A DNA stretch of 64,000 nucleotides from Plumapathes pennacea (lineage: Eukaryota > Cnidaria > Anthozoa > Antipatharia > Myriopathidae): positions 9,130,067-9,194,066 of the forward strand of contig OZ038469.1 of assembly GCA_964036295.1 (NCBI GenBank), given 5' to 3'. Shown here piece by piece: positions 3,506-39,197 of this stretch. The notes beneath the pieces were generated by a model. It was not told the origin of the DNA. It made no database searches and saw only the letters and a program-made list of their open reading frames with translations. Made by a program: the position numbers and the translations under genes. Within the stretch, counting starts at the first letter, position 1. Every line of letters starts with the position of its first letter.

Positions 3506-6500
3506 TTAAGACGCTTTGGTCGGGGCAAACAATTCAATAAGCCCAATGTTTTCCTGTTCATCCAAAGATGACGCTTCCTTGGGAGGAAGCTTGATGGGTG
3601 GTAGGTCTTTTATCTTCACTTCGTTCTTGAACATCTGGCCGATGTGTTTCTGGTGGAAGGGAAAATTATGGCACTTGTCGGACATCACTGTCAAAATAAA
3701 CGCACTATGACACTCCTTCAACCGTACAAGACTGCGGTCGCACTTCTTGCGAGACAAGTTGCGGAAGAAATTGCGCGTGTGACACCTCTTTGCAACTTGA
3801 AACGCAACGAAAACCGCGAGACAATTAAGTTGCAGGAAAAGTTGACCGGTCTTCTATCTTTTCAACGTTGCGTGATCTTTTGCAGCGTGTTGCAACTTGT
3901 CTCACAATGCTGTCGTTATAGCGTTGCGAAACAAGTTGCAGGGAAAATTGCCTCGTACAGTAATCAACAACTGCCTCAAAAGCAATGTGGATTGAATGTC
4001 CGTGCTGAAATTAATGCATTGTAAACATATTGGTATACCATCCACACATACGGTACACTGTACGTTTTTAAGATAGATAGATAGATAGACAACTTTTATT
4101 TATACACGATAGACATTAAAGCGTACAGCTTGTGGGGTCGTGTGTACTAAGATTAATTAACTGAAAATATTTCGGGCTCAAAAACTATTAAATTACACTA
4201 CTACTAAATACTATGAAACAGATAGGGTCGGGAGGCTGCATCTGAATTACGATGAATCATGATTGTTCGGATTTCAAATCGTCTACATCACAGCCACCGG
4301 ACCTTATAATCAAATAAATAAATGTTCACCAAGCTGATAAAAAGATAACATTCTCTTCGTCATGATTATTAGTTTTGCTGTTTCTACCGCACGTCGGTAA
4401 AATACCTCAATGCATCTCACAAGAAGTTTTAGACCACACACTAATTAAAGCACTTACCCCAATAATTCCTTCTACAAGCTTCTTAAAACTGTCGCGTTTT
4501 CTTTTCTCCGTGGCCGGCTTTTCTCCAAACAGCATTCCTTCAAATGTCTAAAGTCAAGAAAGTGTATGGGTTTAAAAATAATTCCATAAATTCAACATCA
4601 AATTATTGTTCTGTTGTTGTTGCTGTTGTTGTTGTTGCTGCTGCTGTTGTTGTTGTTGGTGTTGTGTAAAGAGTAGAAATTTTCGTCCTTACTGGAAGTC
4701 GGAACGTGGAATGATACTGAAATTACGTACACCGTCGAACGTTTTGAAATAAATTGCAGCTATTTATAACTTGTCAGTGTTGTATGGGATTCAATTACCT
4801 GTAGGTCTTCGAAAGTGCATCCTGAACAATCCATCAGGAGGTGCTGCAGATTCGGATACTGGGGTTTCTAGAGCGGAAACAAAGGCGTCTCAAGTCTCCA
4901 GTTTATGTGGAGAAAGCTGCACCGGAAACCCAAGACTGGACCCTCCACCAGTCACCCTGGGCGCGCCAACTACTCACACATGTTTCAGTTTTAAACAAGC
5001 CGTTTACACAAGAAACCACAACTCGTCTCGGGGGCAGGATCACTTCATGTAAACGGCTCATTTCGATTTATAAAGAAATGTATGTGAGGATCCCCTGGTC
5101 CCCTGGACATCATTTCTCCGTATATACGGGGACTGAGGTGGCTGAACAGAGGAGAGTACACAGGTTGTGAACAGCTACCGCGTGACATGAAACTCTTATG
5201 TTCAAGTGTACAACTGCACTCTATGAATAATACTCATCATTCTTATCAGAATGATCACTGTCGATGTTACTAAAACGGGAAATGAGGAATGAGATCAAAG
5301 AAGCCGACAAGACCTAAATTACATAGGGTTAGGTTTAGGGTTAGTTTTAGGCTTAGGTTTATGGTTAGACATCAAAACAACTAGTCCTAACCATAACCTA
5401 ATCCTAAATCTAGCCCTACGCGACTTAGCTCCGTCGGCTTCTTTGATATAATTCCCATTCCCCCGTTTCAGTAACATCCGATCACAGCCTTAGGCTACAG
5501 CGCCATCTGAATTATAACATCCGAAAGCAACGAGGCTAGTTTCATTCGAGTTAGGAAAACCTCTGATTTGCTAAAGCTGCAGAGGATTTTTGTTTTTTGA
5601 AATTGCAGTTTCTTGAAAAATACAACAAACCAATGCATGTATAGCGATTGGTTCCACACGCAATTGTTTTCAGTTCTAGATGTTACAGTGGTCTCTGGGG
5701 TCAGGAAGCCCCTCTCATAGTACGATGGAAAACGAATACTGTACGAAAACGATACGAACAAGAAACAAATGTTGGCTGTACTAAGTATGAATGTACATTG
5801 TAACGTACCAACATCTCGTACATCAGTTGCCCGACACGGCAAAGCAGTGTCTGGACAAAGGGTTGATCATGGACTTGAAGACCCTAAACAAACATCAGTT
5901 CGGTTATTCAAATTTTATGAAGCCAAACAAAAAAACTACACAAATTGAAATAAACACACACAAAAGCAAGACAAACCTCCTTGAGAAGTTTAACCAAAAT
6001 ACAGTGAAACATCCACCCCCCTCAAGCGACCACCTAACCAAGTACCAATTGGTTTCTCAGCTAAACTATTGTTAGTGAAACCTCTCGTAAGCAACAGTGA
6101 CCACCTTGCGTTTTTCTACTGTTTTGTTTTCTGGTTTTGTTTTGTTTTGTTTTGTTTTTCTTCTTTTTTTTCTTTTCTTTTTAACCTCCAGTAAGCGACC
6201 ATCTTGTGCAGCTAAAGAGCAATTATTAAGCAAGGAGTAACTCTCTTGCAGAAACCGACCAGGACCGGACAAATGCTGACATATGTAATGTGACGTGACT
6301 TCTTAGAACTCAAACTGTTATTCTGTCAAGAAGGTGCAGTACTAATTGCACTAATGGTTGTGGTTCAAAGCTAGATCTCACTTAGGCCTCTTATGCCGAG
6401 AAATCCCTTACCTCCCATAAGCGACACCTTAAACCTAAACCAAGGGTGGTCGCTTACGGGAGGTTCTACTGCAGTTGTATGAAATATTGAGGACAAATAG

Positions 6501-9500
6501 TGCTGGCGTAAAGTAGTTGGGAGCCCGCTTGAAAATATGAGCTCGTTCTAGAAACAGGAACAGTCTGCTAGAAACAGTCTTGCTTGACTTCTCTGATGCT
6601 TTGAAGGCGCGGGCATGATAGCATACTAAAACGATTGCACACGATACCTTGAGCACTTGCACATAAAGCTGTTCAAACACCGGTGCCGGGACCGTCGAGC
6701 CTGCAGCTTCACACATACTAAGAACCTATAACGATAATAACAGCAACAACAACAATAATCAAACCGTAATACATAACATACAATAAACAGTACAACAACC
6801 ATTTCCACCAAATAAAATTTAGTGCACCTGCAACTATCAGGTCCAAATAAGCTCGCTGAGCGAGTGACACAATCAGAAGCCAAAATCGTCCGCGTTTGGT
6901 TTTAATTTGAAAAAGAAACCCATCAGCAGTGCAAGAACACGCCATCACCACCTGCTTTTTCGCGCGAGATTACCGCAATCAAGTTTTGCTTTAGCTCATA
7001 ATTGGCCAAAAATGCTGCTAAACTTGTTTTGGAACAATCCGAAAGCGTAGCAAACGCAAAACCAAAGCATCACACGATTACTTACGACAGTAATCCGAAA
7101 ACGGCTCTAAGGTTGACAATACTCATTGGCTGTGTGCACACCCTAAAACCCTCTAACCAACCCATCGATGGCCACGAGATATGCGAAAGAAGAATAGCTA
7201 AATTTATATTATTTCAACATTACTGTATTCCCTAATTGCATTAAAACCAAACATTACATACTTTAAGAGGACGTGTTTGAAGAGAGGCGTACAGTATAAT
7301 CTGTCCAGTATTTTTAACTGGTTTGATACAAGGAGCCAGTAAAGAGTGATCGATATTACCTGAACACTTCACGTGGGTGACTCCACAGAAAAATACTTTT
7401 TTTCTCAAGAAAGGTATTAGGAAGAAAAAGTCAGTCCAACATTTTATCATGCACGAGTTGGATACCTCACCTCTCTAATGAACGTCATGCTCAGACGCGT
7501 GGCTTTTTGACAAGCAGAAGAATCTAGCCACGTCATGCAAGAGAATACAGTGAACAGCAACTGTTGATTGATCTCCTGTGAAAGAACGATAGCAGTCACA
7601 AACATGCAGCAAGAATCACAAGCAGTTGCACTTTCGTTTCTAAAGAAGTTCGAAAAAGCCCTGTCGATAATTTCTGATTTCATCACACAATCTGTGTAGA
7701 TGGATTTTCTCAGCTTGAATCAAACTTGAATCTGAAGATTGAAATATTCTGTTTTCAATATACTCTCATTGTTCCTTTCCCCCATTTCTGTCAATGTTTA
7801 GAGATCGTCGTATCCTATTCCGATGTAGTTAAATTTGTAATGTTTCAGCATACTATGAGGAGCGTGGGGGGATTGCCGGCTTAGAAGAAACGCTTTAAAT
7901 GTGTCCTCAAATGTTATTGTCAATATCGCAGGTTCAACGTAAATCTTGCTTGATCAAATACTCAAAAAATTCAAATGTGCTACTGCCTCGAATCATCCGC
8001 ACTGTGCAGCTGTATTTCACTCTTCACTTTATACCAAGACCTATTAATTTCACCTTTCTCTCCCAAAATCAAAATGCAGATTCTTCCAACCCTTTAAAAA
8101 GAAACTGTTCAAGTTATGTAGTGAGAATTGATATTTCAGCCAGCTTTCATTGGAACAAGTTATCAAAAGCCAAGTTCTCCTTACTGTATAATATATTTCT
8201 GGTGAGAAACTGAGGGAGAAAATTGAAGTTGGTCACTCTTGGGAGTGAAAGGTTAAAGGGCCCAAGTCATCCAGTGTGCTTTGCGCGCCCAAATCCGTGA
8301 TCGGCCATTTTCTCAGCCACAAAAATGGCGGATTTTTAACTCTGTGAGGCCAATCTGAGTCCATCCTTGTGCTTTGTTGTGCTGCACACCTTCATCTGAT
8401 CCAGTTGTATTCCGGATGGACCACTTAATGTTTTCGCCGGATTATTTCTGGTCTATCGTTTACGTATTTTGGAAATTGTGAAGATATATGTTAACCGTTC
8501 CGGCGGTCGGCGAAAAGTTCCAGAGTCTTGCCGGAGAATCAAACTCTGGGAAATAGCTATCGATCTCTGGAAGCAGCGGAAAACCCAGTTAAGAGATCCA
8601 AGGGCTCATTAACAGCGAATTGGCTGAAATATTTGTGCACCAAAGGATTGAAGAACTCGATCAACAAAATTTAGTTGTGAAAGCCACGGACAACAAGATC
8701 AACCCAGGCTGCCTTGAATGTGTGCGTATATTGCAATGACGTCTGTGATTTATGAGATTTCATGCTACAGCTAAACAATGGTTTTAACGAATATAATAAA
8801 GCTTGTTTTCAGTCTTTTTGATTTGAGCTAGATTTTCAGACTCAACTCTTTCAGTCAACCACACTCCCACGTCTTGTTGTTCAACATGAACTTTCCTCGG
8901 GAAGACTAATATGATGTAAGTAGTCCATTTTGATTGGTCGCATTTATTTTTAATTTTTGTTCTGTATGTCCTAGTTGCTGCACTACTGACCTACTGTGGG
9001 TTTTCGTATCCAGAAAAAAACATCCAGAAATAGACCTGCACTCAATCAGTCATATATCAGGGGTTAGGGGAACCAATGTTTTATACCAGTGTGGCTGGAA
9101 ACTATAAGTAAATGATGAATCGAGATAAATTTGAAGGGGGAACTTGCATGCATGGTCTGTCTGTTTCTCATGTTGTACATCTGGACTGCTTTATCCATGG
9201 AAAATAATGAGGAAAATAGTTATTTGTTTGCAAATTTGAAGCAATGTTATTGGCATGTCCATGTGCATACCACAACATCAGAGTATTTACAAGCAAATGT
9301 ATTTTCAGCTGCTTGTGTTCAGCATGGGAAAAATAATTATTGACAAGTGTGTTGTCAAGGTTTCCCACATTGAACATAAGAGGCGGAGTTCCGCAAAGAG
9401 AAGTTTGCTTATGATCACATCATCCCTGGCTTGGCAATAGTGTATTATTATTGATATATTGCTATCTAACACAACTCACATTGCTAAATAAAATAGGGCC

Positions 9501-12500
9501 CAGAAAATAGGACTGAAACAGTTAAATACATAAGTAGACAAAATATGTTTTTTTGTGTGTGAAATAGCACTTTATGTTTGTGAGATCTCACTATAGCCAA
9601 ACATGTAATTTTTATGAAACAGGTCTACCTTGGATAGTGCTGCACTGACAGCTTTGGAATTTGACTTTGACTTGACATATAAAGAGGGGAGTGAGAAATT
9701 GCAATTCTTGACCATCATTTTCAGCATTTTAGTCTGAAATAGGGTATGGATTTTTAGCCTTTGGTCTGGAATAGGGTAGGAGATTTTGATATTTCGTCTG
9801 AAATAGGGTTGAAAATTGCAAATTTTAATCTGAAGCAGGGTTGAAAATTGCAAATTTTGGTCTGAAAACAGTTGTAAATCACACATTTTGGTCTGAAATA
9901 CTGTAGGGTCGATAATTGCAAATCTTGGGTCTGAAATAGGTGGCACACTCCCACCCAGTCACACCATGCAAACTTCCTGAATTCTCAATGCATTATTCAA
10001 GTTTATAGTTAGGTAGCGGTACTGTCGACTGTTGAGAAGGAACTAGGTAAGCTGAGGAATATTATGATAGGGATTTTGAAAGTTTTATCCTTGTAGTCCT
10101 TACACAGAAAGATCGCAAGACATTTGAATTACCTTTCCTACCATATCTCCAAAGACAGCACTGTCTCTGAGGCATTAATACTAGATTACAGTAATCTGGT
10201 TTCTACACAGAGTGAAAGAGTGCACAGAAAGTCACTAAAGTCCATTTCTTGCAGCACACATCAATTTGTACTCACAGCATGTCCAGAGAATGAAAGAAAA
10301 AGTTCAGAAATATGTTGACTTATGATTTACATTAATAGAAGGATTGATAAATGACAATGTTACTGTAGTTCAAGTCTAAAACATCTATAAATGTACTGCA
10401 ACTTCTGGAATGCACTTTCCATAACAATACAGTATTCCTGTCGAATATGTTAGAATTGAGAGTGGCAGAGTACCCTGCAGTTGCTCTAAGTTTCTGTTTA
10501 ATCCACAAATTTCAACTCCAAATCCTCATTGGGACAGCTAAATTTTTATTGGAGTGCATGATAACAGCAAAGAACAAGATAGCAACAGAGTCAATCTGAA
10601 GAAAACATACAATGTCACACTAGCGAAAAAAATTGCACATGCACATGCAGGACTGAAAAAATATTTTCTGCCAACTAAACGTTTCTGGCTATCGATATTT
10701 CGAGGCGTGAAGCGATGGAACGCTTTTGTAAACTGGTGGGAAATTAAATAGTTTTAAAAATCGGCTTTGCTGTTCAATACAATGCTTCCAAATAAGTTAT
10801 ACATCACACGGTTGGCGCGATGGTTGAAGAATTCATGACTACAAATGATCATTTGCGCAAATAAATTCCCAAATGTATGTCTGCTTAGCTTAACCTCATA
10901 ATTTGACAATTTAGGCATACGATTACAAAACAAATATGGCAGTGAAAGATACGACAAAGACATCTTATGTGAAATCTGAGCGAAATCAATAAATTCCGAC
11001 ACTATTTCAGACTATGATTACCCCGATAGTCTCAAGACGTGAAGAAATGAGACCGCAATCTTCTCTTCAGAAAGAAAGTCACCAAAATCTATGCCGGTAA
11101 GCTTCCACATCAGACATCGATCGACGCCATATCATTCAATTCAGTGTGCCCTTGTGGTTACCGGAGACCACCCCAATTATTCAGATAACAACAAAAACAC
11201 AAGCGCGCAAAGCACACTGGATGACTTGGGCCCTTTAGCATTATGGTTTAAAATAACAAAATGATAATTGCGCATGGCCATAAAGTTAAATATTAGCCTG
11301 CTTCTTCTGTGCATGGCCAAGATAAAAAATAGGCACCTGTGAGGTGCATGTGTCTACTGCAAATTTTCTTCTATTTTTTGAATAAAGAAATGACATTTGC
11401 CACAGGCCAGTGCCCTCTTGCACCACAAGATAATTTTTGACGTATTTTCGTTAGCTTGAATCAGCTGGTCCGCTGCCAAAATGTCGCGTCGCATCTGTGT
11501 TTACGCTAAACTGTAGTATAAGAAACGATTTTTGTGTCTACTGCGCTTGCGCTAGTAGACACTATGCCATCGACTCATTTAAACAAATGTAATGTAGTTA
11601 ACAATGGATGCACCATCGGCCCATCGGAAATATGAAAGCAAAGAGCTTTCGCATCGGAGCACGACGACCGAACGATGATCGACTCGACAAAAGCGATGCG
11701 TTGTGATCGTTGAAAAGGCAAACGTGTGTTGAGGTTAGTGAAAGTTCACGATGAATTTCTTCACCAGTACGGTGCATAGTTAGCTGGTTATCATTTTGTG
11801 TTAATATTTCAGTCGGCAGATCGTAAAATGTGAAACACCCATTGGCCATTTGGTCGTTTACTTCAGTGAGCATTTGTTTACGACATGTCTTCAAAGTTGC
11901 CAGGATAAGTACCACAACTTTTGAAGTTGCCCTTGGAGGGTTAAAGCGAGTTTGTCAAAACTTCGCTCGATTTTCCCTGACGGAACTCTCAAGAAAACAA
12001 CACATGCTTGTACGTATGTATTCAGTCACCCAGTCAATGTTTATTTATTTCATCGGTTTGACTGATACTGTAAATGGTGAAACCAGTCTATGAACCTCGA
12101 AGGGTCGCGTCTGCATTTGTTCGTGCGAGTTAAAAATAAACGTTACTCTTGAAAAAACATGTTGTATTGGTCGTCATCTTAATCGGGTTTAATGAATATG
12201 AATACCGCTCGGAAACAAGATACGCCGCTCAAAATGGGTTTTAGCGCTTCGGAGGGTAAAACAGGCAGGGTTTTGTGCAATGTAGAATATATCATGCCAA
12301 TTTTGCTTTGATTTAGAAGGAATTTCGGCCGCTTTGAGTTTGCAGAGCAATTAGTTTGACTCACTCTGTTCAGCCGAATTAAATATGCATGTTACTCCAT
12401 GATTGAGTGCAGGGTTGTGATTCCTGTGGTGAGCAATTATCACCCTGTCTCCTTGCGTGACGAGCCAAATAACGGCTGCGAGGGACCTATATTCACCCCT

Positions 12501-14345
12501 GGCGGACACATGTGCGTTTTTAGGTACCTATTTTAAATCTGGTCTCGAGATCTTCCATTAGATTATTATTATAAATATTTAATAAACATAGGATTTGGCC
12601 GTGACGGGTGTGGGGTGAAATGTTTACAAAAACTGTCAATGGCAACTGAATATTCATATTTCCTAGCAGTGGTTACTGCCCCTCAAGCACCTTCATCTCC
12701 AGGAACCTATATTCCTTCGCCTCGCGACACTCCCAGAGCTGAGGTAACCCAAGTGCTTCTTTGTGCTGATCCGAGTTTTGATCTGTGAAATGCCTTCAAT
12801 ATCTGGGTATCCTTCTCTCTGTTCCTCCATTTATAAGTGTGTGCATTTTTGCTGTGCTTAAATTTTCTCAGTTTCCCCAGAAATATAAAGTGTTTCTTAT
12901 AGAACAGTGCAGCGTAAACACAAATGCGATGCACCATTTTGGCAGCGGGCCAGCCGATTCGAGCTAATTGGAATACGTCACAAAACATCTTGTGGTGCAT
13001 GAGGGGTGTGGGAGCTGTTTCATTCAGTACCTGTGGCAAATGCCATGAGTCACGCTAAAAATAAAAGATGAAATGCAGTAGACACATGCACCTCTCAGGT
13101 GTCTATTTTTTTTCTGGGGAAACTTAAGAATAGGGAAAACGCACACGCTTAATGCAGGAACCGAGGGAATGATGCCCAGACATTGAAGGCATTTCACAGA
13201 TCAAAACTCGGATCAGCACAAAAAGCACTTGCGTTACCTCGATTCCGAGAGCGCCGCGAGGCGAGGCTGAACTATTGGAGAAATATAGGTTCCCGGAGAT
13301 GAAGGTGCTTGAAGATGCAGTAGCCATTGATAGGAAATATGACTATTCAGTGCCATTGGCGGTTTTTGCAAACATTTCACCCCACAGCCGTCCAAATAAA
13401 ATTAGTAACGACAAGCAGAACTAGGCTCAAGTAAAGTATATACTTATTTTAACTTGTACGTGAATGACCAAATGGAAGATTCATAGGTGCTTCACATTTT
13501 ACTGTCTCTGTCGACTGAAACATCGACACAAAATAATAACTGGTCGACTTACGTACCGTTGCAACGTGTTGTCATACTGTACACAGTTCATCAGGAAAAT
13601 CGGGCAACGCATAGTACTGGCCAGAACCTTTCATTCGAACGTTTTCGGCACACATACTTCCAAAAACTGTGATTTCTGACAAAATTAATGTCAAGGGGCT
13701 TTAGTTTCCCCAAAAGGGGCTCGATGTTGTTCTGCGTATCCGCGTCAAGCGTCCGCAGCTTTCCCTCGGCAAGGCAACTCGTCGCTCTAACTCCGTATTG
13801 GTTCAGTTGACGCCAAGTTCGTCGATTCACAACACTGAAGAAACCTTTCGTTTGACCGGTTTGACACATATTTCGAAAGCTGTGGTAAGTTATCCTGGTA
13901 AGCTTAAAGCAATTCATATGAAATATTCACTAACCCGATCGCCTCGCTGAAAACGCTGTGACCTCATGGGTTTCTCGTGATCACGAGCTTTTCACGAACC
14001 AGCCTGGTGAAGTTCGTGTACAATCGGTATTCCAGTGCTTCCTTTCATTGGTCCCGAATATCAACGCGTGATCATTTATCGATTCTTACATCACATTACT
14101 TACATTACACGACCGATGGCATAGTGTCTACGCTTCTTCGAAGCAGTAGACACAAAAAGGAAAAAACATCCCTGACTTTTCACTAACCTGCTACAACCAT
14201 GTTAAAGACACTCTGAGCTATTCAATTCACTCCTGAACTATTCAACTCACCTCCGATTGCAGTAGTAACGTGCCAAGTGGACCTAGTTTATCGTCATAAG
14301 GGTCTGCACCAAAGATAAACACACGGAATAAATACATTTGGCGTT

Positions 14346-14388
<43 letters not shown>

Positions 14389-17300
14389 AACATTTTAGTT
14401 TCGGTTTGGCGATCAGCTGTCTTTCTCTGTCACTATAATGATCACATGGATACCGTGGAAATACTTTTTTCGACAGTGCAGTCACCTTGGATTCAAGTGC
14501 AGAGTTTGTAGTTAAATGTAACGCTCGTAAAACCCCAAGACTTAGCCAAGAAACTCAATATTAGGACTTGATATTCAACTATCAGTTAGTTCAATGCATT
14601 TTCTATAATATAAACTGTGCACAAGAAAAACGAGGCTTGCACTCGATGTGAAATTTTAACTCGAATTAGACAAGTTAGATAGCCATGGCGACGAACGCTG
14701 ACCAACGGAAGTGACGTCAAGATAGTATTTCCGCGGTGCGTGTCAGTCACACGTCGAGTTTTCCTTGACTGCTGTATTTGATTCCTATCTTGATCTTGTC
14801 CTCACCTTCTTTCTTTTTGCTTCCTGTTTCCCCTTCGTCTCCTTGTGACACTCCTGCCTCAGCATCCACCTCAACCTCCATGCCGGCTGACCGGCTGCCC
14901 TTTTTTAGTGTACAGGCCAAACCTGTTTATTACAGGTCTTCAGATTAGTGCGGTACGACGACACAGAATAAAGAAACAAAACTTAGGATATAGTTAAAAC
15001 CCGTGCAAATGAACGCAACATGTTGGCACAACATCGCCCAGCAGTGCTACCCAAAAATCGTTGCGAAACCGTACAGTGTTGTTGGAATCCACAATTATGA
15101 GCCCAATGAAAATAAACGATGTCAAACGCGAAAATGCATCGCAATTGCTGCTCTTTCCCTCGCATGAAGCATTCAGTGCACAATGTTGGGCGATGTTGTG
15201 CCAACATGTTGCATTCGTTTGCTCGGGCTTTTATTGCTACTGCTTGTACTACTACTAACCAGAACAATAATATTCCGCACAAAACCAAATAATAGAATAG
15301 AAAGTTATGTTGCCATAGTGGAGCCTCCGCTAACGGACAATTCAGCAGAACGGACATCTGCTGTTTTTGTTACTGACTAACCCTTTACACACAGCAACAC
15401 CTCCTAACAATGTAGACTATATTTTACGCCCCCTTTTCCGCCTCTGATTGAAGGTCTCACTGTGCTATAAAAATACAGTGATTTCCAGCATGAGAGGGAT
15501 GCAGAAGGGATACACCTGTCAATTTAACAGTAAGCTTCTCACAAGAGAACATTAGGTATATATTCAAGCAGCAGTGTAAAGTTTTCATGCTGACTACAAG
15601 AGCAGGAAATGGACTCTTCATAAATCAGTAAGGTTTTTCAAGAAAACCAGTATTTGCGACTTATCCACATAACATAGGGATAGAAAGCGCAATTAAACTG
15701 CGTGTGATTACGGATGTAGGTCTTTTAATTTGACAAACTATCAACACAAGGAGCATAACTTACTGAACAAATCGACATAGTCCTTCGTAACAAGGTGCAC
15801 CATCTGATCTTCAATTATTTCCTGGGATTCGACGTTTTCTTCAGAGTGATCCTCTTCCTTAGATGTATGGCTGACGTAGAAAGAAATCAGCTTTACAACA
15901 CAAAACATCGACCATCATCTAAAAGCAACAAGTGGGAGCACTGACTACAAACGAGGAAATTGATCATCTCGTGCACTTCAAATACCACATAAAGAAGTTA
16001 AATGCCAAACAGGCGGACATCTTTAACTAGTCTAGGATGACTTGAAAAACCGTGGATTGTGTAAATAGTTCACCTTTCTGCTTGTCTCATCCTGACTTTC
16101 TGCCATTCTCGCTCTAGATGCTGGAAACAAACACAATAAAGATATTTTAGTGTAAGTAAGACAGCTATGCATGCAATATTATCTCATCGAACAACGCAGG
16201 CAAAAGCACAAAGGGGTGAAAATGCTTATTAGTAGCCACTGTAGTCTCTGACAAATCCAATCTTTGAATATCTTTGTTTAACAAAAAAGAGATGTAGCAA
16301 ATCGCGTGCTGTTATAGAATCTTATACAGTGTATTCACCGCAGGTTTTGACAATATCGAGATAAGTAAGATGCAGCTATAGATAATAATGATATTTATTT
16401 ATACTGCGCAAATTCAACAATCACAGTTTTCAAGTGCGCCTTACAGAGGGTATAATAAAAATATAATAATAATTATAATTATTTAAAACAAATGATAAAA
16501 ACATGCAGTGCAATTATACAAATTAATACTAATCTAAGCCAATTTAGAAGATAGATACAGACCAAGCTATAACATGGAATGATAAAAAGTGGGACTCGAC
16601 CTCCAAAAGAATCACATTTGTAACTTTGCTCCACCTTGTAGATAACTATCACTTACCTGCAGCATAAAAGCAAAGAACCTCGAGACCACGGGTGTAAGTG
16701 CGTTGCTGTAGTCACACAGTGGGCAGTTCATTATAAAGTTTTTCATAAAGGCGCTTAAAATTCGTCAAGGGAAATGTTGAGTGAAACAAAGTAGCAACAA
16801 AGAAATGCGAAAAACAACAACAACAACAACAACAACAAACAAACCAAACCAAATAGAGTAAAAAAGCACAAGAGACTGTAAGCTGCTTTCAAAATAAACC
16901 CAAACATAATTACTTGTATTTATATTCTTTTTATCACTTTTAGTTTGGAGAACTGCCGATAGTTGCATCAGTGATTCTAATGCTTATAGTCCACTAACGA
17001 CGCTTCAAGCAACTGGCCATTTCCGAGATGCCTGTTGCCTGTGCGAAACCTTTCTTAATATGAATATGAGTTGTATTTGCATGAAAATGAAAACCCATTT
17101 TCACTAAAAAGGATTCGCACGGAGGCAACAAGTATCTCGGAAATGGCTTATTTCGCACAAAGTTTACACCGTCGCCATATGTTCGATGGCAACATACACA
17201 TTATGAAAGCCACGCAAGAAATTTAAAATGCAGTTCTTTAAGAAACTTGACCTTTCTAAATAAGTTCTACGAAAATAATGCAGAACAACCAAGTGCCTGG

Positions 17301-20300
17301 TGAAAACTGTCAAACATTCAAGGGAGGATATGAATTACAAATCTCATCCTGTAGTTGGGAACGTGTTCAAGAGTGCCAAGCACATTCTCCACGATGTAAT
17401 ATGCCAGCATCGGCAAGTTGTAAAAGTCATGTCCCATGGCAAGTCCAGCAGCACCAAGTGTGTAATAACTGAAGAAAAGCACACATTACTACTAGAAATA
17501 CGATAATCGCAGATATCCCCTCGCTCAGTAGTGGGTTTTCGGAAAGCGGGATTCTTGTTTATTTTCGGTTCGGAGATTATTTAAAATTTTTTTTGCAAAC
17601 CACGGCTGTGTAGCGACGTCACCAGTCGGCCGCTAAAAAAAATCTTTGTCGCACGGCAGTCTGGTTTAGTTCAGACAACGTGCACAGTCTGCAATTTTCG
17701 TAGACACTAAGATGAACTTCAAAAGTCGCTGAGACAACAAAGCCGATCTTGGACACTGAAATTTTTTTTTTCTTTTTTTTTTTTACTTTATAAGTTTAAT
17801 ACGCTTCTTCGAGTGTGACAAAATTTAGAGCCGTCAAAGCGAGTCGCTTGTTTACACGCTTTCGAAGTCTCGGGACCGTGTGAATTTTGGCAGGGATTCA
17901 ATTTTGAACACAACAACTTTTCAAACTGCGTTTTACGATTTTAAAATCTTTGACAGAAAAAAGAAATCAAGTCACTAAATAATACAAGGTCCGATTGTAT
18001 TGAGCGAGCAAACCCGGTCACTAAATAATACAAGGTCCGATTGTGTTGAGCGAGTATCTTACGGGGTCCCGCTAGTAGACAATAATATACTAGAAATACG
18101 ATAATCGCAGATACCCCCTCACTCTGCCATTGATGGGACTTTTACTTTGGTAACTCCCAACAAGAGTAGCCTTTGTTTTACCGAAATGTTGACTCAATCT
18201 TTTCTTCGAACTCAAGTGCTACACGCAAAGGAAGGAGAAAAAGAATGGTGTGTGTTATACTTTTGCGTTGAAAAAAGAATCGATTGCGTGACGAATTACG
18301 TATTTCCCACGGTCACGGCACGTCAAATTAATTCATACAGTCTGCCATGCACGTTCTCAAAATTTAATACTCAAAGTTTGAAGTTGGTCGGCCGTCGTAG
18401 TACGGGAAAAAAGGAACACTGATTTTCCAATTTTGAATTCATAGGCAGTACAATTAAATAGGCTTCCTGTGCGATTTGTTTTTACTCTGGATTGCATGCA
18501 CAGACTCGGGCATGGATATTGGCTCGAATTGTTTTGTATGTGAACCCACTCAAAACAGCAAGATTTCTCCCAGAATCAAAGCAAAACTTGAACAGTTTAC
18601 TTCAAATTATACACGGGCTTCAGACCCAGTAATACTTCTAAGGGCTTGTGAACGATTCTCGCTGCAATCACCGCGTGTCAGATTACAGAAAAATAAGACA
18701 TCTGACTAAATCATTCAAGACTCCAAGTTCCGGTTGCTCTGAGCGAATACGGTAGCCGAAACTGGTGACAGAAGCGTAGTAAAACAATACTTCGAGGGAA
18801 AATGATCAGCATACAGATTTTAATACATTCTTGAAGTGATCGAGTTACAAGCTATACGGGATAGAATATATTTGTCACGGTGATTGCTCGATTTCCACTG
18901 ACTAACCTTTGTTGCTTGTCCTTTCTAAATAAGTATCTGAGTTTAATACAAAACGGCGTCTGAAGCTCCCGATTTGTTTTCAAGCGCTGTTCCCTTTGCG
19001 GAGTTGTCTGTGTTACCCGCTTCTGTTCTTGTCGCTTTTGGTCGGCATTGCGCTGTTGTCTTTGCGGAGTCTTCTCTTCGGCCCGCTTTTGCTCCTGAAG
19101 TTTCCAATTTGCTTTCAAGCGCTGTTCTCTTTGCGGAGTTGTCTGCGTTACCCGCTTCTGTTCATGTCGCTTTCGATCGGCATTCATGCGCTGTTTTCTT
19201 TGCGGAGTCGTTTCTTCGGCACGCGCTTCTGTTTATGATGCTGTCGATCATAACAGGATTGTCGCCTTTTCTAGAGACGAATTTGGCGTTGTTCGCTCGT
19301 TTCACGATTTCGCCTTGCTCGTGCCTGTTCCCTTCTTATTTGAAGACGAGCTTCGCGAGACTGTTGTGTTTCAAGTTCTTCAGTTTTTAAGTTTTCCATT
19401 TTCGTGAACGCAGTTACGATATATTGTTGCTTCGTTCAAATCTAAATGCTTCGTTCAAATCTAATTTCTCAATTGTTCCGAGTAAAACAATAGGGCACAC
19501 GTGATCGATCCGGCCTTTGTTATTGGTTAGCGGGGTAACCGCGCCTAAAGTCGTACGCCAGACTGACAGACAACGTTAAATTTCGAGATGGCGACAGGCT
19601 TGGAGTCTCCAAGTAGGCGGTATAATAGTACTGCATTAGTGTCGTAAGTATTTCCCTCACTTCGTTCGGGGACAATAGACTGTAATTGTTTAATTTGGAA
19701 AGCAGTGGCCGGATATTTTCTACTTTAATAGCCTTCAAAAAGCAAAAGCATCTTAACCCGGTTACATTTTATCCTTGAATACAGTGTGCCAACAAACGCG
19801 GCGACAAAACTTCACAGCATGTGTCAGACTGTCAGTGAAATTATGCAAATATGTCAGGAATCAGATGACACAATCTTGCATGAAGGCACTCTGAAATAGC
19901 TTTGAAAACTAGCGAAGAGATCACAGTATAATCCTACTTGGCCTTCATCACAGTTCCCGGGGCATCAAACGACAAAATATACGGCAATTGTTAAAATACC
20001 ATAATGATAACACGACCCTCATTTAACAAAAGCGTTGTACGTTAATTGCTGTAAATTTTCAAAACTCACCGGTTCCTGAAAGCCATAGCTTTAGCTCTTT
20101 TCCAGCAAAGGAAACAAAACCCAAAACACTATTGTTTACGTCTTCATTGATTTCAAAGTACAGTGTATAGAGCAGTCCTCATACAGTACGAAAATTCCAC
20201 TTTCCATTGTATTGTGTGTCGTCATCTTGTCAAACTTGGATTCTGAAAACTACATTCCTGTTATTGTAAAAGGTGAAATTTGTCACGATGATTGTTCAAT

Positions 20301-20641
20301 TTCCACCAACTGTATTTCGCTATTTCTTTCTGAAGAAGTGTCTGCGTTTTAACACAATACTGGCGTCTGGGATTGTGTTCAGGTCGACCAGTTGTGCCTT
20401 TAAGAATCCGTTTCACGGCTAGTAAGCTTGCCTCCCATACACCGACAAAATATCCGGGCAAATTATAGCCGTCCGTCGAACTGCTTGGCCTTGTATCTGC
20501 ATCTTATTGTACAAAATCACTTCCGTTCGTACTCTTACAGCTACCGCATGTCACTAAGAAAATGGCGGTTTACAGTTAAGCTGCCGATGTAACCTCGCAG
20601 TGGTCGCTCGACGCGGATGGCCCTGGGGACGAGTCGTACCC

Positions 20642-20672
<31 letters not shown>

Positions 20673-23600
20673 ACACACACGAACATTAAATTTCGAGATG
20701 GCGACACGCTTGGAGTCTTCAAATGATGCGATTTTGCTGCATTAGCGCCGTGATTATTTCCCTCACTTCGTTCGGGGATTAAAACTGCCTTCTGAGGCAG
20801 ATAAACATCTTCAGAACTTTTGGAATCAAGGTAAACTCTCCCAGGTTGTGAGAAAGTTCGAGACTATAGAAAGTCAAAAACAGCCAAAAAAAGCAGTGCT
20901 CTCATGGTCAATGTATTTTAAATATGTTTTTTTTTTGTACATGCCACAAACAAACACAAATCGCACTCTTTTGAATGTCACTATCCAAATTCAATGAAAT
21001 AGTTCAGCATCATTTCACTTACCAGGATTCGGTGAGGTAGTAGAGATAATTTCTAGTCCTTAGGACAGGATCAGAGAAACTCTCTTCAGGTCTGTCAGTT
21101 GCTTCTGCGAGGGCTAAAGAACAAAAAACAAAAACAAAATCATACGCATATTTTATCATTCCCACACTCCTCCATTCCCACATAAGCTCTTGACGGTAAA
21201 TTGAAAAAAATAAACAAAAAAATAGAAAAACATGGAGAAGGGGCTATTTTCATCCACAAAAGTGGAGACCTAAGATTAAGAACTCATCTAACAAAATATC
21301 CACACATACACCGTTTTACTGGTTATACTGTATCAGGTATCTTTATTTATACACGGTAAGTAGTTCAGCAAAGCTGGTGGGGCCGTGTTTTTAAACTTAA
21401 CGTAAATTGATTAAGAATCCCAACTGGTCGGAGGCTAACCAGTTGCTATTTACATAACGTGGTCGAGGATTTGAACCCGGGGCTACCGTGTTGCAAATTC
21501 AGTTAGTGGTCAGAGCGGGACTTGAACCTGGGACCTCCGGATTTGAAGTCCGGTGCTCTAACCACTCGGCCTCTACCGTAAAACTAGCGTACGGACGTTC
21601 TTTGAGTACGTAAACAAGGTAATCCCCGAGCGAAGTGAGGGTAATAATCACGGCGCTAATGCAGCAAATTCGCTTTGTGTGGAGACTCCAAGCGAGTCAC
21701 CATCTCGAAATCTAATGTTCGTCAGTCAGTCTGTCATAGGGCGACCTCTAAGGCAATGACATAATAATAATCGATTAGCGTCAAAGCGAGGTCAAACAAA
21801 GGTTTGAACGAAGCAACAACTGTACGTAACTGCGTTCACAAAAATGAATTTGAAAACTGGAAAACTTGACACAGCACGGTCTTGCGAAGCTCGTCTGCAA
21901 AAGAGAAGGGAACTAGCACGGGCAAGGCGAAATCGTGAAACGATCGAACAGCGCCAAATACGTCTAGAGAAAAGACGACAAACATTTGATAACCGACAGC
22001 ATCATGAACGGAAGCGTGCCGAAGAAACGGCTCCGCAAAGGGAACAGCGCTTGGAAGCAAATCGGGAGCTTCAGACGCCGTCTTGTGTTAAACTCAGATC
22101 CTTATTCAGAAAGGACAAGCAACAAAGGTTAGTCAGTAGAAAGCGAACAATCACCGTGAAAAATATATTCTACCCGTATCTTGTAACTCGATCACTTCAA
22201 GAATGTATTAAAATCTGTATGCTGATCATTTTCCCTCGAAGTATTGTTTTAATACGCTTCTGTCGCCAGTTTCGGCTACCGTATTGGCTCAGAGCAATCG
22301 GAATTGGAGTCTTGAATGATTTAGTCAGATGTCTTATTGTTTCTTTCAAGACTAAAACTGTAACAAATACTGTAATTCGCCCTTAGAAGTATGACTAGGT
22401 CTGAAGCCCGTGTATAATTTGAAGTAAACCGTTCAAGTTTTGCTTTGATTCTGGGAGAAATCATGTTGTTTTGAGCGCGTTCACGTACAAAACAATTCGA
22501 GCTCATTAAACATGCATGCCTGAGTCTTGTGCATGCAGTCCAGAGTAAAAACAAATTGCACAGGAAGCCTATTTAATTGTACTGCCTATGAATTCAAAAT
22601 TGGAAAATCAGTGTTTCCTTTTTCCCGTACTACGACGGCCGACCAACTTCAAAATTTGAGTATTTGATTTTGAGAACGTGCTTGGCAGACTGTATAAATT
22701 AATTTGTCGTGCCGACTGACCGTGGGAAATACGTACTTGATCGTCACGCAATCGATTCTTTTTTTCAACGCAAAAGTATAACACACACCATTCTTTTTCT
22801 CCTTCCTTTGCGTGTAGCATTTGACTTCGAAGAAAAGATTGAGTCAACATTTCGGTAAAACAAAGGCTACTCTTCTTGGGAGTACCAAAGTAAAAGTCCC
22901 TTCAATGTCAGAGCGTATCTGCGATTATCGTATTTCTAGTATATTTGTCTACTGCACCTCTTCCATGTCCCCACAAAGAGAAAGGTTTTCAAGCCCAAAA
23001 ATCCTGTGCAGACCACGTACTAAATAATAATACTTGGTAATATAAGTAATAATATATAAATATTGACACGAAATAACAGCTGTACAGTTTTTTTTTTACC
23101 AAAGATCGCACTCTTGTCAAAATCATGTATGTCCAGAGCGCCAACGTAAGAGGGAAACATGAGGGCTTTTGCTTGTGGATGATAGAGGGAGTTCACAGAC
23201 CTACAAAACAAAAGGCGACGTTCGATAGTCACGTGTGTAAACATTACACTGCCAGCTGCTGACAAAGAAACACCAAAAAACAAACAAACAAACAAAAACG
23301 AAAAAACAGGCGACTATTACCAAACAGCTAAAATGTCAATATTTTAGAAAAATAACACGAGGTTAATTACTTTCGCCCTCGATGACATAAGTATACCCAC
23401 AAATACGTTAAAACGATTGAATGATATTGCCAAGGAATAAAGGGTTACGTAAAAGATGCCATTATTTTTGAAAGCAGAATTGATACCGACAGCAGAATTA
23501 AAAGCGATTATTCCCAAATCAGAATAGTAAAATAATAAAAGTAATAAGAAGACAATTACAGTCTATTTAGTTCGGGGGTAATACAAAAAAACGCGCCCTA

Positions 23601-23691
23601 TTTGCGGTCGTTTTCGAGCTTCCACACAGCAAGATTTTGCAATTCTCAGGGAAAATACGACTAATTTGAGTGGCCTACAATTATGAAAAGC

Positions 23692-23771
<80 letters not shown>

Positions 23772-25329
23772 GTAAAAAAATCTTAAAACACTTTTGTTGA
23801 AATTATGCCATAAATAAATATTACCCAAAGCACACTTCCATGGTTCCGTGCCCAAGGTATACTTACTTCATCAAGACCAAGATATTCGTTAGCAAAGGCA
23901 GCACCTGCTCTGTACAAGGATTCCGAACATAAGGTGTCCCATCAGGCATAAACCCGATGGAAGGACCTTGACTGGCATCACTCTGCATAAAGGTAACGAC
24001 AGATGGAGATGACTAACTGGGCTGGCTAGACTACAACTCAACAAACACACTGTCACATGCCATAAACCCCAGTGGGCTCTTTGCACGAGAACTGGCACGA
24101 GCTTCAAAATGAGGCTGACCTGGCAAAACTGAGATAATACCTTGGAAATTTGTGCATATAACTCCCCAAATGAAACATGTGCATCTCCCCTGTAGACGGC
24201 TTGGTGTTTTAGAGCGACATGTCTGGCACATTTCGTGCCAGGTTAGCCTCGCTTTGAATCCAAGATGGCGGCACCGTGCAATGAGCGAACAACAGACTTT
24301 TTAAGTTTTTTCCCTCCATCAATTTTTCCATGCTCGATCTACTCTGATACTCATTGTTTTGCCGATGAATGAGAGGCGGCCATTTGTTTACATTCTCAAA
24401 ACTAGCGAATTGTGTGCTACAAAGTTTTGTTTTGGGGGGCTAACACCAAGTATTTCCAGTGTTGCAGTCTGATTCAATTTTCAAACTCCGAAATCAAGGA
24501 CACAATGAAAGTGACTGAGGAGGCCTCTTTACTATAATCCGGATGAATTCTAGAGGCTTCCTCGCCACTATTTAGCGTACAACAATTCTATTGTGCCTGT
24601 ACATATTGTATTAGTAATCTATGTGGCAAAGGTCAATAAATAAAACTTATCTAGAGTCAAAAGTCACAGGAATAGACTGAAGAGGGAATGCCTGGAGTCA
24701 AGGGCCATCACAGGTCAACTAGAGACAGGTTCACAGCACCCTAACTCACAATCGCTAGTCAAAGGTAGCATTCAGCAGTTGATATATAATATCAACCACT
24801 ACAGGCAATATGACAAAGGAACGTATATTAAAATTCAGTAGAAGAATACGATAGATATATAGTCTAACAACAAAGTTAAATATTATGTGGGCCAACAAAT
24901 TCGTGTGAAAACAAGACTGCAGTGAATAGATGTATGCTCACCACAGGGTCCTTGGGTGCAGAGCATCTTTTCACAACACTCTCAACGGTGCAGACAATAG
25001 AGAGGAGCTGAAATATCAAACAGGCAAAAGACGTCGTTGAACGAACAAATATCCATTTAACAAACGTGCTAGTACAAGTCTGAAAACATATTTAATCTGT
25101 AATCAGATTATTTTGTATCCGACCGGTTTAGTTAGAATTTAGGTAGAATATATATCATATTGCTGTATGCACTACTATCTAATAATTAAGTCCCAAATTA
25201 CTTTAGCCAACAAATTATTTTACAATGTCCTTAATTAGTTTGTAAAAGGCTAAATACATTGACACTTAAATAAAGTTATTATTACTATTATTATTATTAT
25301 TATTATTATTACTATTATTATTATTATTG

Positions 25330-25402
<73 letters not shown>

Positions 25403-28400
25403 TAATATTTAATCATCAAAAAAAGACGACAGTACAGTTGAGGAACAAGTCAGGGTAACCACGAAATGAGAGAAATAATCTGCGATAAAATAGGACAATG
25501 GGGCAGCTTTACTGTGCTGTACTTATACTATTTTGTGTCATTAACCAAATTGCAAGAATCATACAACTGATTTAGGGATAATTTAGTTGAATACTACTGA
25601 TTCTGACCGATTCTGTTTTGTTATTATATACGTCACCCCCTGTACCAGTACGATAAGGTCACCAAATGAAGAAACAATTCACCATTCTTCATGAAAACAC
25701 CTATCAGTCTTTACCACTTGAATATAGCTATTAAGAATATTTTGTTTAGAAACCTTGCACCTCGTGGGAAGTCGACCATGTTAGAGGCCAGAACATTAAG
25801 ACATGTTTTGCATGAGAACATATCCAAATTCCAGGGTGGAGGTAGAAGCAAAACAGATTCATATCATAACGTAAAACCTCATACCTGAAGCCTTCTTTCA
25901 CTTGTGTCCCCTGAAAATAAAGCAAAGCGATCTAAACAACAACCAACCAAAAACTCCCTAAACGTACATCTAACTTTCAATGCAAATATTCAATGCTTGG
26001 ATAAATTCAATACTAAGACCGGAGGACTGTGTCTGGTATGCTTTCCATGCTTTCCATGCTTTTCATGCTTTCCATGCTTTTCATGCTTTTCATGCTTTTC
26101 ATGCTTTCCAGCTCCTTCTGACAGCATTGATTTTATCTAAAGCAACTGTTGGCCACATCATCATTGAAAACTATTCACTTAACTACAGAAGCAGTAGCTT
26201 GGGACCTTTTGGACAGCGAGGTGTAAACAAGGACACACTTGAATAACTTGACTACGATCCACAACTTTGTAAATTAACCCTTTCAATCCCACGAGTGACC
26301 AACTTCAATTTTCTCCTTCAGTATCCCACTAGAAATACATTACAAAGTAAGGACAGCTTGGCTTTTGATATTTTGCTCATACTAAGTCTGATTGAACTAT
26401 CAATTGTCACTACATCACTCATAAAATTTCTTCCTAAAAGGTTGTATTTTGAACTTGGGAGTGAAAAGGGTTAAGTAAACAGCTGGTACGACAACATTAA
26501 CAGATGCATACACTGTAGTACGCAAGAAGAGTTTTTAATAATAAAGGGGGGGGGGGGGGGGGGGGGTTGGGTGGTTCATTTGGGACTATTCCGGAATAAG
26601 AATAGCCGGAATAGTATGCATACGCGCTCGTTTGGGAGCTATTCCTATTTCGGGATATTTGGAATACTATTCCGCCTATTCTGCTCCGGGAGGCAGAATT
26701 TCCAGAATATTCTGGAAAAAAAACGTCATTGCTTCATAGAAACAAAGATGGCGGCGCTTTCAGACCCGAACGTAAAAACATTTGAGCCGAATCAGAGAAA
26801 AGGGGTTTTCTTTCTCCCTTTTGCATCGAAGATTGCAAACTCGTTAGAGTAACTGTTTAGGAAACGAGAACCTGTCTATTTGCACCCTAAGTTGCACTCA
26901 AAAAGTTTGCTGTGACACACCTCAAATACCTTACCATATGTGGGATAAAAAATGAATAAAACAAATAACAAGTGAATAGTATACCACGTACACCTGAGTG
27001 ATAAATGGCATAGTTTTGCGTGGCATAACGTACCGTCTTCCTTGAGGGTCTTGGAATCTTTGTCCAATCCAAGGTAAGCAATGAGAGCTTGCGGTGATGA
27101 TATCGACCTAATATGGGACGAATTATCACGACGACATAAAAAAGAAACGGTCCGTAGCACCTGGATAAATGTCAAACTCAAACCCACAATATATCACATT
27201 CATTTGCAAGGAGGTCCACAACGCGAGTAGGGAGCCAATCAGAATGCAGGATTGGCTTAGAACACTAGTTGATTTTTAAAGTGAGATAGATTGTTAGTCA
27301 CAATTAAGAATAAAAGCATCAGCAGCCACAATTCCTTACTCCACACAAAGTTCTCAAAAACTTACTGTTTCATCTTCTCTGTTAGCCAGACTTTTTGTAT
27401 GGGATCCAACAACTCACTGAGGAAAGCCTTTCGACTAGCAGGATCTTCCAGAAAATTGCTGGAGGAAAGATGCAAACGGGAATACAAGTTTTGATTTGGA
27501 AAAAAAATTGTGTACGTCAGATATTCCAATTCAATACACATCTATATGTTCAACGTCATCTTGACGAAAAAAAGATACTTCCAAAAGAGAAACATTCCAA
27601 TTACACGTTGCTACATTGTCGTCTGGAAGACAGTTAAACTGACATAAGCTTTGCATGCAATGGAAAAACTGAATCATACACCCGGGTTTGCTCTGGAAAT
27701 CTACATCAGAAATTTAGAACAAAAAGTTAAAAGAAATAGAATAAATCAACTTTAGATGTCTGAACCTACCTGGCGTAGACTAGAGCGTCCGTGAGAGTGT
27801 TTTTATCTTTCACTGTAACCACCTTACTGTCAAACATGGATTGTATGTGCTGCTTTAGTTGGTCAAACGCTGGCTGTTAAATGCAAGCAAAACATAAATT
27901 AAGTATCCTCTGGGACACAATAAATCAGTTCGGCAGAGGAGAATCATCTGGGGCCGGATTCAAAAAACTTGCGTACGAACTAAAATGCTCGTAAGTATAT
28001 TTTACGCATCGGAACAATTACTTACGCATACTATCTTGCGCAAGATAGTATGGGTAAGTCGTACTTACGATGCGTAAGTCATACTTACGAACATTTTCGT
28101 TCGTACGAAAGTTTTGTGAATCCAGCCCCTAGTTTCCAGCTGTATGAAACATCCATAATTACAGAAGAAAATTTTATTGTCCCAAAGGCGTCATTGTGCA
28201 CTGTGCAATTTTCTTGGCAAATTTTCTCGGCACATTTTTTCGCAACGCCGTTTCAAGACAAGTTGCAGAAGAAATGCACAGTGTAACATGGTACCTCAGC
28301 AACTAAACCGCAATTTTGTTGTTGCGCGCAACGTTGCACGAAGATCGAAGAATTCAACTCCTTTCGCAACGATTGCAGCAACTTTCAACCGCAGTTCCAG

Positions 28401-34400: not shown

Positions 34401-34603
34401 GCACCCTAAATTGACAAACCTCTATTTGCTTCACTTTAAACAGCCTGGACATCACAGCTTCTATGTAACACGTGGCACCTTCAAATTTGAGTTTTACGTC
34501 CTGTAGTGCAGGTAGTGCAGGTGCACCTGAGAAAGCAAAACAACAAAAGACAGAGTACTGTCGAAGTTAAATCAAAGTTGTGGGTTACATACTACAAAAG
34601 AAA

Positions 34604-34635
<32 letters not shown>

Positions 34636-37600: not shown

Positions 37601-39166
37601 CCAGATACTGTCGGAAGTTGGGTGGCTTTCCTAGTGGCCGCTCTTCATTCTTCGGAAAACATTTCTTGGCTTAGTGAAAGTATATATTCATGTTTAAATA
37701 GTACCTTGATTAAATTGTCAGCTTTCTGAACTTACCCACATGAAAAACAGTTGTGATACTCCAAAATTTGTCAAGACCTGACAAAGTCTCTTCAGAAATA
37801 AGTACTGTTTCTCATCAAAGTACATTACACTGGCTGCTTTCCTATGAAAACAAGTGGATTACTACATAAGAATCACACTTTTACCAGGGATAAATCAATT
37901 AATATAGACTAGTCTTGGATGAGTACAGTTCTGTGTGAGAAATCAAAGAGAAAGATCACAGAAATAAATGGGGACAGTAGAACTAAGACAAGCAAGTAAC
38001 ACAGTGTACTGTGTGAATTAACAAATTCACTTCAGTTTTTTATGTGTCTGTCCTATTATGGATGATGAAACGTGTCAACGTTGTCAAAAAGCTGTGGATC
38101 CACGAGGTGCTTCGCTGAGGAATGTCGCTTTTACAGAATGTTGCTTTTGCAAGAATTGAGGTAAAATTGAAGTTGAATTCACATTCTTCATTCATGAAAG
38201 TGAGAAACTGATGTGGGTATTGTAAAATGACAGTTTGCTGATACTGCATGGACACGTGTGCATGATCTGTAAGATGATGTGCATTATAATATAGATGTAT
38301 AGTGATAGAAATTGTCTATTTAGGTACATTGTAGAAGTCTGATATTGTTTGCTGTCTACTGCTGAAGTGTCAATTCATATATGAAATCTCTCAAGTGAAA
38401 TAACAATGCAACTTACTGGGCAGCTGATAACATTACACGCATGGCATCTTCACTGAGCAACTTTAATAATGGTAGCCGCTGGTCAATTTTTCCCTGTGTT
38501 AACAGAAATCCAATGTCATTATAAAACATTGAGTATTCTGCTCATTGTTAGACGCAAATTACCTGTCGGCAACTTCTACATAAAAATTATCTTCACTAAC
38601 TTTCATTACCCCTTAATATCAAGCTAAATTTTAGCCCCACGGAATGCTTAGAAAACTTTCCCTTATAAATTCAGAATATAAATATTATCTACTATTCAAA
38701 AGAAAATGCTTGAGTGATATTGTATGATTGCTAGGTCAATCATGTAGCTTCCATCTAAGTGAACTATCACATGGCAAATTCTCCATACATATGATATCTC
38801 TCTGGTGAGAGACTGAAGGAGAAAACAGAGGAAAATAATATAGCTGTACATCACCAGACAACACAAACATAAAAGGGGAATTATGAGCTGTGTCTCCAGA
38901 GGTTTCAGCCACCTTGCTTCCACAAAGTAATACAGGGCCATTGAGACTCTCAATATTCTTTAACCCTTTCCCTGTGAGCTCATAGTATCTATTAAAGATT
39001 TCAGAAGAAAATGTAGCTTGTGTATAAAGTGTGCTAGACTGTTTGCTGGCTTGTTGACAAAATAGTTAAAAAGCAAAGCAGCTCAATTTTCATCAAAAAC
39101 TTTTTGTGATGATGACTCTGTGCTAACCCCTAGTATGTGCTTGGCTAAAACTCCCTCTTAAGCCAC

Positions 39167-39197
<31 letters not shown>

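What the first reader, a model, noticed from the sequence alone, without database searches (positions are those of the whole stretch)
16755..17331. Candidate U12-type intron with AT-AA borders in XPO5
Seen: donor ATATCCTCCC, branch-like TTCCCTTGAC ten bases before the acceptor, and a reading frame that is kept only if the intron ends in AA. The spliced protein then aligns without gaps to human exportin-5 across the junction, including the Arg codon split by the intron. Known: minor-spliceosome introns can tolerate unusual terminal dinucleotides. Inferred: this is a functional U12 intron with a rare acceptor. I do not know whether other animals have a U12 intron here.
Basis: partly seen in the sequence, partly recalled or inferred. 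Interest (0 to 1): 0.72.

Follow-up and report, generated by a model that had tools for sequence, protein, structure and literature searches.

The report
Minor-spliceosome intron with AT-AA ends
In the exportin-5 gene of an unnamed animal, one intron looks like a rare minor-spliceosome (U12-type) intron ending in AA instead of AC or AG; this is an uncommon but already known kind of intron, though the same genome's U6atac RNA gene looks oddly altered and deserves a check.

Summary
Window 17331-16755 (minus) is a 577-nt intron in an XPO5 gene spread over about 43 kb. Donor ATATCCTCCC and branch site TCCCTTGAC (A 10 nt before the end) are U12-type. Of 2345 stop-free in-frame donor/acceptor pairs scored, AT-AA 17331/16755 aligns best with human exportin-5; no in-frame GT-AG pair was found. 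Correction: an AT-AC acceptor at 16764 also keeps frame, but adds three residues, lowers the Pfam score from 27.4 to 20.8 bits and uses the branch motif's own AC. U11, U12, U4atac and U6atac genes are present. Three other U12-type introns examined (PHB2, KCMF1, NAA60) are AT-AC. AT-AA is in print as the commonest non-canonical minor-intron terminus in animals and plants (PMC10639083), so this is a new member of a known kind. Splicing is not shown; no RNA was available. Side finding, more surprising: the only U6atac gene found reads AGCCGA where the Rfam consensus reads AAAGGA, the segment that pairs with the 5' splice site, although the four donors examined keep ATATCCT.

The parts
16755..17331 (-). 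U12-type intron, 577 nt, AT-AA termini, phase 1, inside the Arg codon that aligns with human exportin-5 Arg893
17322..17331 (-). 5' splice site ATATCCTCCC (U12 A-type core ATATCCT)
16764..16772 (-). branch site TCCCTTGAC, one mismatch to TTCCTTGAC; branch A at 16765, 10 nt before the intron end
16755..16756 (-). 3' terminal AA; next base G (16754) makes an AG one nt downstream that would shift the frame and meet TGA after three codons
   Evidence: sequence
16764..16765 (-). rival AC acceptor, in frame, inserts Ile-Leu-Ser; coincides with the end of the branch motif
17332..17468 (-). upstream XPO5 exon (YYTLGAAGLAMGHDFYNLPMLAYYIVENVLGTLEHVPNYRMRFVI + C)
16657..16754 (-). downstream XPO5 exon (GC + AFMKNFIMNCPLCDYSNALTPVVSRFFAFMLQ)
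3521..46331 (-). XPO5 coding region by spliced alignment, 37 introns: 34 GT-AG, 2 GC-AG, 1 AT-AA; a sketch, two places hold a stop
   Evidence: the model allows only GT/GC-AG or a near-perfect U12 donor, so the counts are partly by construction

Best explanation
The stretch is an A-type minor intron in an XPO5 gene that looks intact. U11 and then U6atac recognise the 5' site ATATCCT, U12 pairs with TCCCTTGAC and bulges the A at 16765, and the second step joins at the AA|G site 10 nt downstream, giving exons that meet in a CGC Arg codon. Shown: the motifs, frame, homology and the snRNA genes. Inferred: that the minor spliceosome cuts here and that the AA is used. How U6atac pairs in this genome is unclear (see the side finding).
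For: First of 2345 in-frame pairs by homology; Pfam Exportin-5 27.4 bits against 20.8 for the AC rival; gap-free match to 3a6p_A. The spliced alignment chose 17331/16755 although AA was penalised against AC and AG. U12, U6atac, U11 and U4atac genes found once each above cut-off. Comparators PHB2 and NAA60 also end 10 nt after the branch A, KCMF1 12 nt (branch sites and acceptors read by eye). AT-AN introns are an established subtype (PMC8280824, passages).
Against: No transcript evidence. Three of three other U12-type introns examined end in AC, not AA. Unconstrained duplex energies with U12 do not separate the XPO5 branch site (-5.4 kcal/mol) from the rival's weak site (-5.8); a consensus site gives -10.5. 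The only U6atac gene found is altered in the segment that should pair with the 5' site.
Confidence: 0.87

Rival explanations
1. The intron is an ordinary AT-AC U12 intron ending at 16764, with a weak branch site TCACTCAAC (A at 16777, 13 nt upstream), and the protein carries three extra residues (Ile-Leu-Ser).
For: In frame with the same donor. AC is by far the usual end of A-type introns (84%, PMC8280824, footnote passage). Comparator branch sites in this genome can have three mismatches to TTCCTTRAC (PHB2, KCMF1, by eye).
Against: Costs 6.6 bits on the Pfam Exportin-5 profile and 10 points on the human alignment. The strong CCTTGAC motif would lie by chance exactly at the splice site, and the insertion would fall in a stretch that aligns gap-free with human.
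Confidence: 0.05
2. Assembly error or private allele: the true or common sequence has AC at the acceptor.
For: Cannot be excluded without reads; only one assembly is held.
Against: 24 contigs over 290 Mb suggests a chromosome-level assembly; AT-AA is common enough among non-canonical minor introns (PMC10639083, passage) that no error is needed.
Confidence: 0.05
3. A U2-type GT-AG or GC-AG intron with misread exon ends.
For: None found.
Against: No in-frame GT-AG pair in the scan; nine GC-AG pairs score 64 or less against 127.
Confidence: 0.02

Closest known systems
AT-AN (A-type) minor introns, AT-AA subtype
   Same: ATATCCT donor, TTCCTTRAC-like branch site about 10 nt from the end, A at both intron ends
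   Different: I found no report for XPO5 in the passages and listings seen; +8 to +10 of the donor are CCC, where the three comparator donors have TTT, TCA and TTC
AT-AC U12 introns of PHB2, KCMF1 and NAA60 in the same genome
   Same: Same donor core and similar branch spacing
   Different: They end in AC
Human XPO5 (exportin-5)
   Same: Orthologous protein, aligned through Arg893
   Different: Intron class at this site in human not tested here

Membership tests
U12-type (minor) introns | 5' site RTATCCTY at the intron start | tested here: met
   ATATCCTC at 17331
U12-type (minor) introns | branch site close to TTCCTTRAC, branch A roughly 10-15 nt before the end | tested here: met
   TCCCTTGAC, one mismatch, 10 nt
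U12-type (minor) introns | minor snRNAs present in the genome | tested here: met
   U12 112.1, U6atac 109.9, U11 101.9, U4atac 66.4 bits, all above the Rfam cut-off
U12-type (minor) introns | 5' site complementary to U11 | tested here: met
   own U11 starts UAAAAGGG against consensus AAAAAGGG; duplex -6.0 kcal/mol with the XPO5 donor
U12-type (minor) introns | 5' site complementary to U6atac | tested here: not met
   fixed register: 3 of 6 pairs with the own U6atac, 4 of 6 with the Rfam consensus. The lack also holds for the three comparator introns (4, 3, 4 of 6 against 6, 5, 6), so it concerns the U6atac gene rather than this intron; I therefore still file the intron as U12-type
AT-AA subtype | AA at the 3' end used in vivo | not testable with these tools
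   needs RNA reads
XPO5 orthologue | collinear match along the protein | tested here: met
   human residues 5-1204 (recalled sequence) in order over 46331-3521; 3a6p_A match of the two exons; Pfam PF19273 27.4 bits, cut-off 27
U12 intron conserved at this XPO5 site in animals | orthologous intron of U12 class in other species | not tested
   no eukaryote collection held; the listings of paper searches named none

The most novel reading that the evidence does not exclude
This animal's minor spliceosome works with a U6atac whose 5'-splice-site box AAAGGA has become AGCCGA while U11 and the introns (ATATCCT...) stayed canonical. The XPO5 AT-AA intron and its fellows would then be spliced without the usual U6atac:5'-site helix, selection resting on U11, U12 and proteins.
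Probability: 0.3. Interest if true: 0.8.

Novelty: new member of a known kind. Interest (0 to 1): 0.32.

Why it matters
As an intron it adds one likely AT-AA case in a gene for microRNA precursor export and warns annotators: gene callers that allow only GT-AG will break XPO5 here. The AAG at the end makes a tandem AA/AG acceptor whose AG form would shift the frame, so minor-intron errors could lower XPO5 output. The U6atac side finding, if real, would test how far the 5'-site helix of the minor spliceosome can be given up.

Tried and rejected
GT-AG and GC-AG alternatives: enumerated, none plausible. AT-AC at 16764: kept as the main rival. CENATAC (PF14968) was asked for and never answered, so its presence is untested. 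Literature on a U12 intron in XPO5: XPO5 with 'minor spliceosome' gave 0 papers; XPO5, U12 and intron retention gave 1 (PMC8698559), of which I saw only the listing; one search found 528 papers holding two of its terms and listed 15, one search found 305 and listed 5, and no title in those listings concerns an XPO5 minor intron. Term searches inside PMC7367187 and PMC6717393 found no 'XPO'. Supplementary tables, where such lists would stand, could not be read. On natural changes of the U6atac box: searches (32 papers, 10 listed; 3; 3; 4) gave listings only, apart from passages of PMC4980772 and PMC8283771, which describe no natural change. The 15-mer promoter-like element found upstream of U12 and U6atac has 4 genome hits (control 0); the other two show no snRNA, so half the hits do not support it as an snRNA mark. 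A 19-mer search for canonical U6atac gave 103 places at up to 3 mismatches against 93 for the control; of the 100 listed, 9 had 2 mismatches, 91 had 3, none fewer. (donor 10-mer over the genome: 237 places against 181 for the control) tells little and was not used.

Full report
What is there. On the minus strand, 17331-16755 is flanked by two exons that encode ...NYRMRFVI-R-AFMKNFIMNC.... The joined 78 residues match human exportin-5, PDB 3a6p_A residues 849-923, over 75 positions with no gap (E 1e-8), and Pfam Exportin-5 at 27.4 bits, just above its cut-off of 27. A spliced alignment of a recalled human XPO5 sequence places residues 5-1204 in order over 46331-3521, with 37 introns: 34 GT-AG, 2 GC-AG and this AT-AA. 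Those numbers are partly by construction, since the model allows only GT/GC-AG or a near-perfect U12 donor. Two places in that model contain a stop (near human residues 740 and 1105), where the exon ends are not well resolved, so the whole-gene model is a sketch. The two exons here are well supported.

Is AA forced? I scored every donor in 17400-17261 with every acceptor in 16830-16681 that keeps the frame open: 2345 pairs. AT-AA 17331/16755 scores highest against human (127), but five pairs with no splice-site character reach 125, so homology alone does not settle it. Adding splice logic does. The donor ATATCCTCCC has the U12 core. The branch site TCCCTTGAC, one mismatch to the consensus, has its A 10 nt before the intron end; every other site in the intron has two mismatches or more. 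A scan of GT or GC donors with AG acceptors over both exons and the intron gave nine in-frame pairs, all GC-AG, with long losses (best 64). In that reading the strong branch motif would be the splice site itself and a weak TCACTCAAC, three mismatches, would be the branch site. Against my reading: two of the comparator branch sites also have three mismatches, and unconstrained duplex energies with the own U12 do not separate the two candidates (-5.4 and -5.8 kcal/mol). I weigh AA over AC by the profile score, the gap-free alignment and the branch spacing.

Machinery. The genome (290 Mb in 24 contigs; an animal by my inference, name not given) has one match above cut-off each to U12 (112.1 bits), U6atac (109.9), U11 (101.9) and U4atac (66.4). 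Three genes listed in PMC2831892 (table passage) as holding U12 introns in fly and human were examined; NAA60 is my recalled name for its entry FLJ14154. All three have U12-type introns here: PHB2 ATATCCTTTT...CTAC, KCMF1 ATATCCTTCA...CTAC, NAA60 ATATCCTTTC...TCAC (acceptors and branch sites placed by eye). So 4 of 4 donors examined share ATATCCT, and 3 of 4 introns end in AC.

What is known. [quoted passage not shown] PMC8280824 (2021, passages) treats AT-AC, AT-AA, AT-AG and AT-AT as one A-type class whose splicing CENATAC promotes. [quoted passage not shown] The XPO5 intron is therefore a new member of a known kind. Whether the site is U12-type in other animals stays open: no eukaryote comparison set was held, and the paper searches named none (0 papers; listings only).

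Tandem acceptor. The base after AA is G, so AAG could also be cut after the G. That form would read ...VI-P-P-L-stop (sequence). Whether it occurs is unknown; if it does, it would make an unproductive transcript.

Side finding. The U6atac gene at C9:17260152-17260279 matches the Rfam consensus closely but reads GUAUGAGCCGAGAGAAGG where the consensus reads GUAUGAAAGGAGAGAAGG. The three changed bases (AAG to GCC, nt 12-14) lie in the segment that pairs with the 5' splice site. Laboratory work used the matching change U6atac GG14/15CC to rescue a 5' site changed from CC5/6 to GG (PMC4980772, passages), and a paper speaks of perfect conservation of the AAGGAGAGA box interaction (PMC8283771, figure-legend passage). 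In fixed register the own U6atac forms 3, 4, 3 and 4 of 6 pairs with the XPO5, PHB2, KCMF1 and NAA60 donors, the Rfam consensus 4, 6, 5 and 6. No second copy was found: the canonical 24-mer has one hit at up to 3 mismatches, this one, and of the 100 listed of 103 places of a 19-mer search none had fewer than 2 mismatches. The assembly may still lack a copy.

The altered gene looks alive. An upstream TAACATCCCATAA element is shared with the U12 gene, and a run of eight T ends the RNA. Against this, two of the four genome hits of that element are not at an snRNA. The U4atac gene carries CCUUAUCG, complementary to the own U6atac CGAUAAGG; the Rfam consensus strands read CCUUgUCU and uGACAAGG, so one pair (C-G to U-A) has changed on both sides. 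U11 keeps its AAAAGGG. So three of the four snRNAs look canonical where they meet the intron or each other, and one does not. A read or assembly error, a canonical copy missing from the assembly, or a real change are all possible; I cannot choose between them here.

Verdict. The intron is most likely a working AT-AA U12 intron (0.87), of modest interest. The U6atac gene is the thing in this genome that a specialist would want checked first.

Noticed in passing
L010:1501-1628 (G000:C9:17260152-17260279:+): The only U6atac gene found has AGCCGA in place of the consensus AAAGGA that pairs with the 5' splice site, while U11 and four of four donors examined stay canonical.
   Followed up: partly
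L039:1501-1622 (G000:C2:15295913-15296034:-) and L010: U4atac and U6atac both differ from the Rfam consensus in a stem where they still complement each other (CCUUAUCG with CGAUAAGG), which suggests that the altered U6atac is the working gene.
   Followed up: partly
16753-16757: TTTTAAG is a tandem AA/AG acceptor; use of the AG would shift the frame to a stop after three codons.
   Followed up: no
L009, L010, L034, L039, upstream flanks: A promoter-like element (TAACATCCCATAA(G/T)G and looser variants) lies about 60-70 nt upstream of the four minor snRNA genes (read by eye). The exact 15-mer has 4 hits in the genome, two of them not at an snRNA.
   Followed up: partly
48527-48871 (+): Protein kinase exon (Pfam Pkinase, E 5e-9), head to head with XPO5; it reads like a NEK-type kinase, by eye only.
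   Followed up: partly
51501-52859 (-): Broken retroelement frames: 51501-51833 matches RT_RNaseH (E 5.8e-10). Two neighbouring frames have no hit above cut-off; they look gypsy-like by eye only.
   Followed up: partly
L031:2380-2502: Long near-perfect inverted repeat about 1 kb from the U12 snRNA gene, matched below cut-off by microRNA models; probably a small inverted-repeat element.
   Followed up: no
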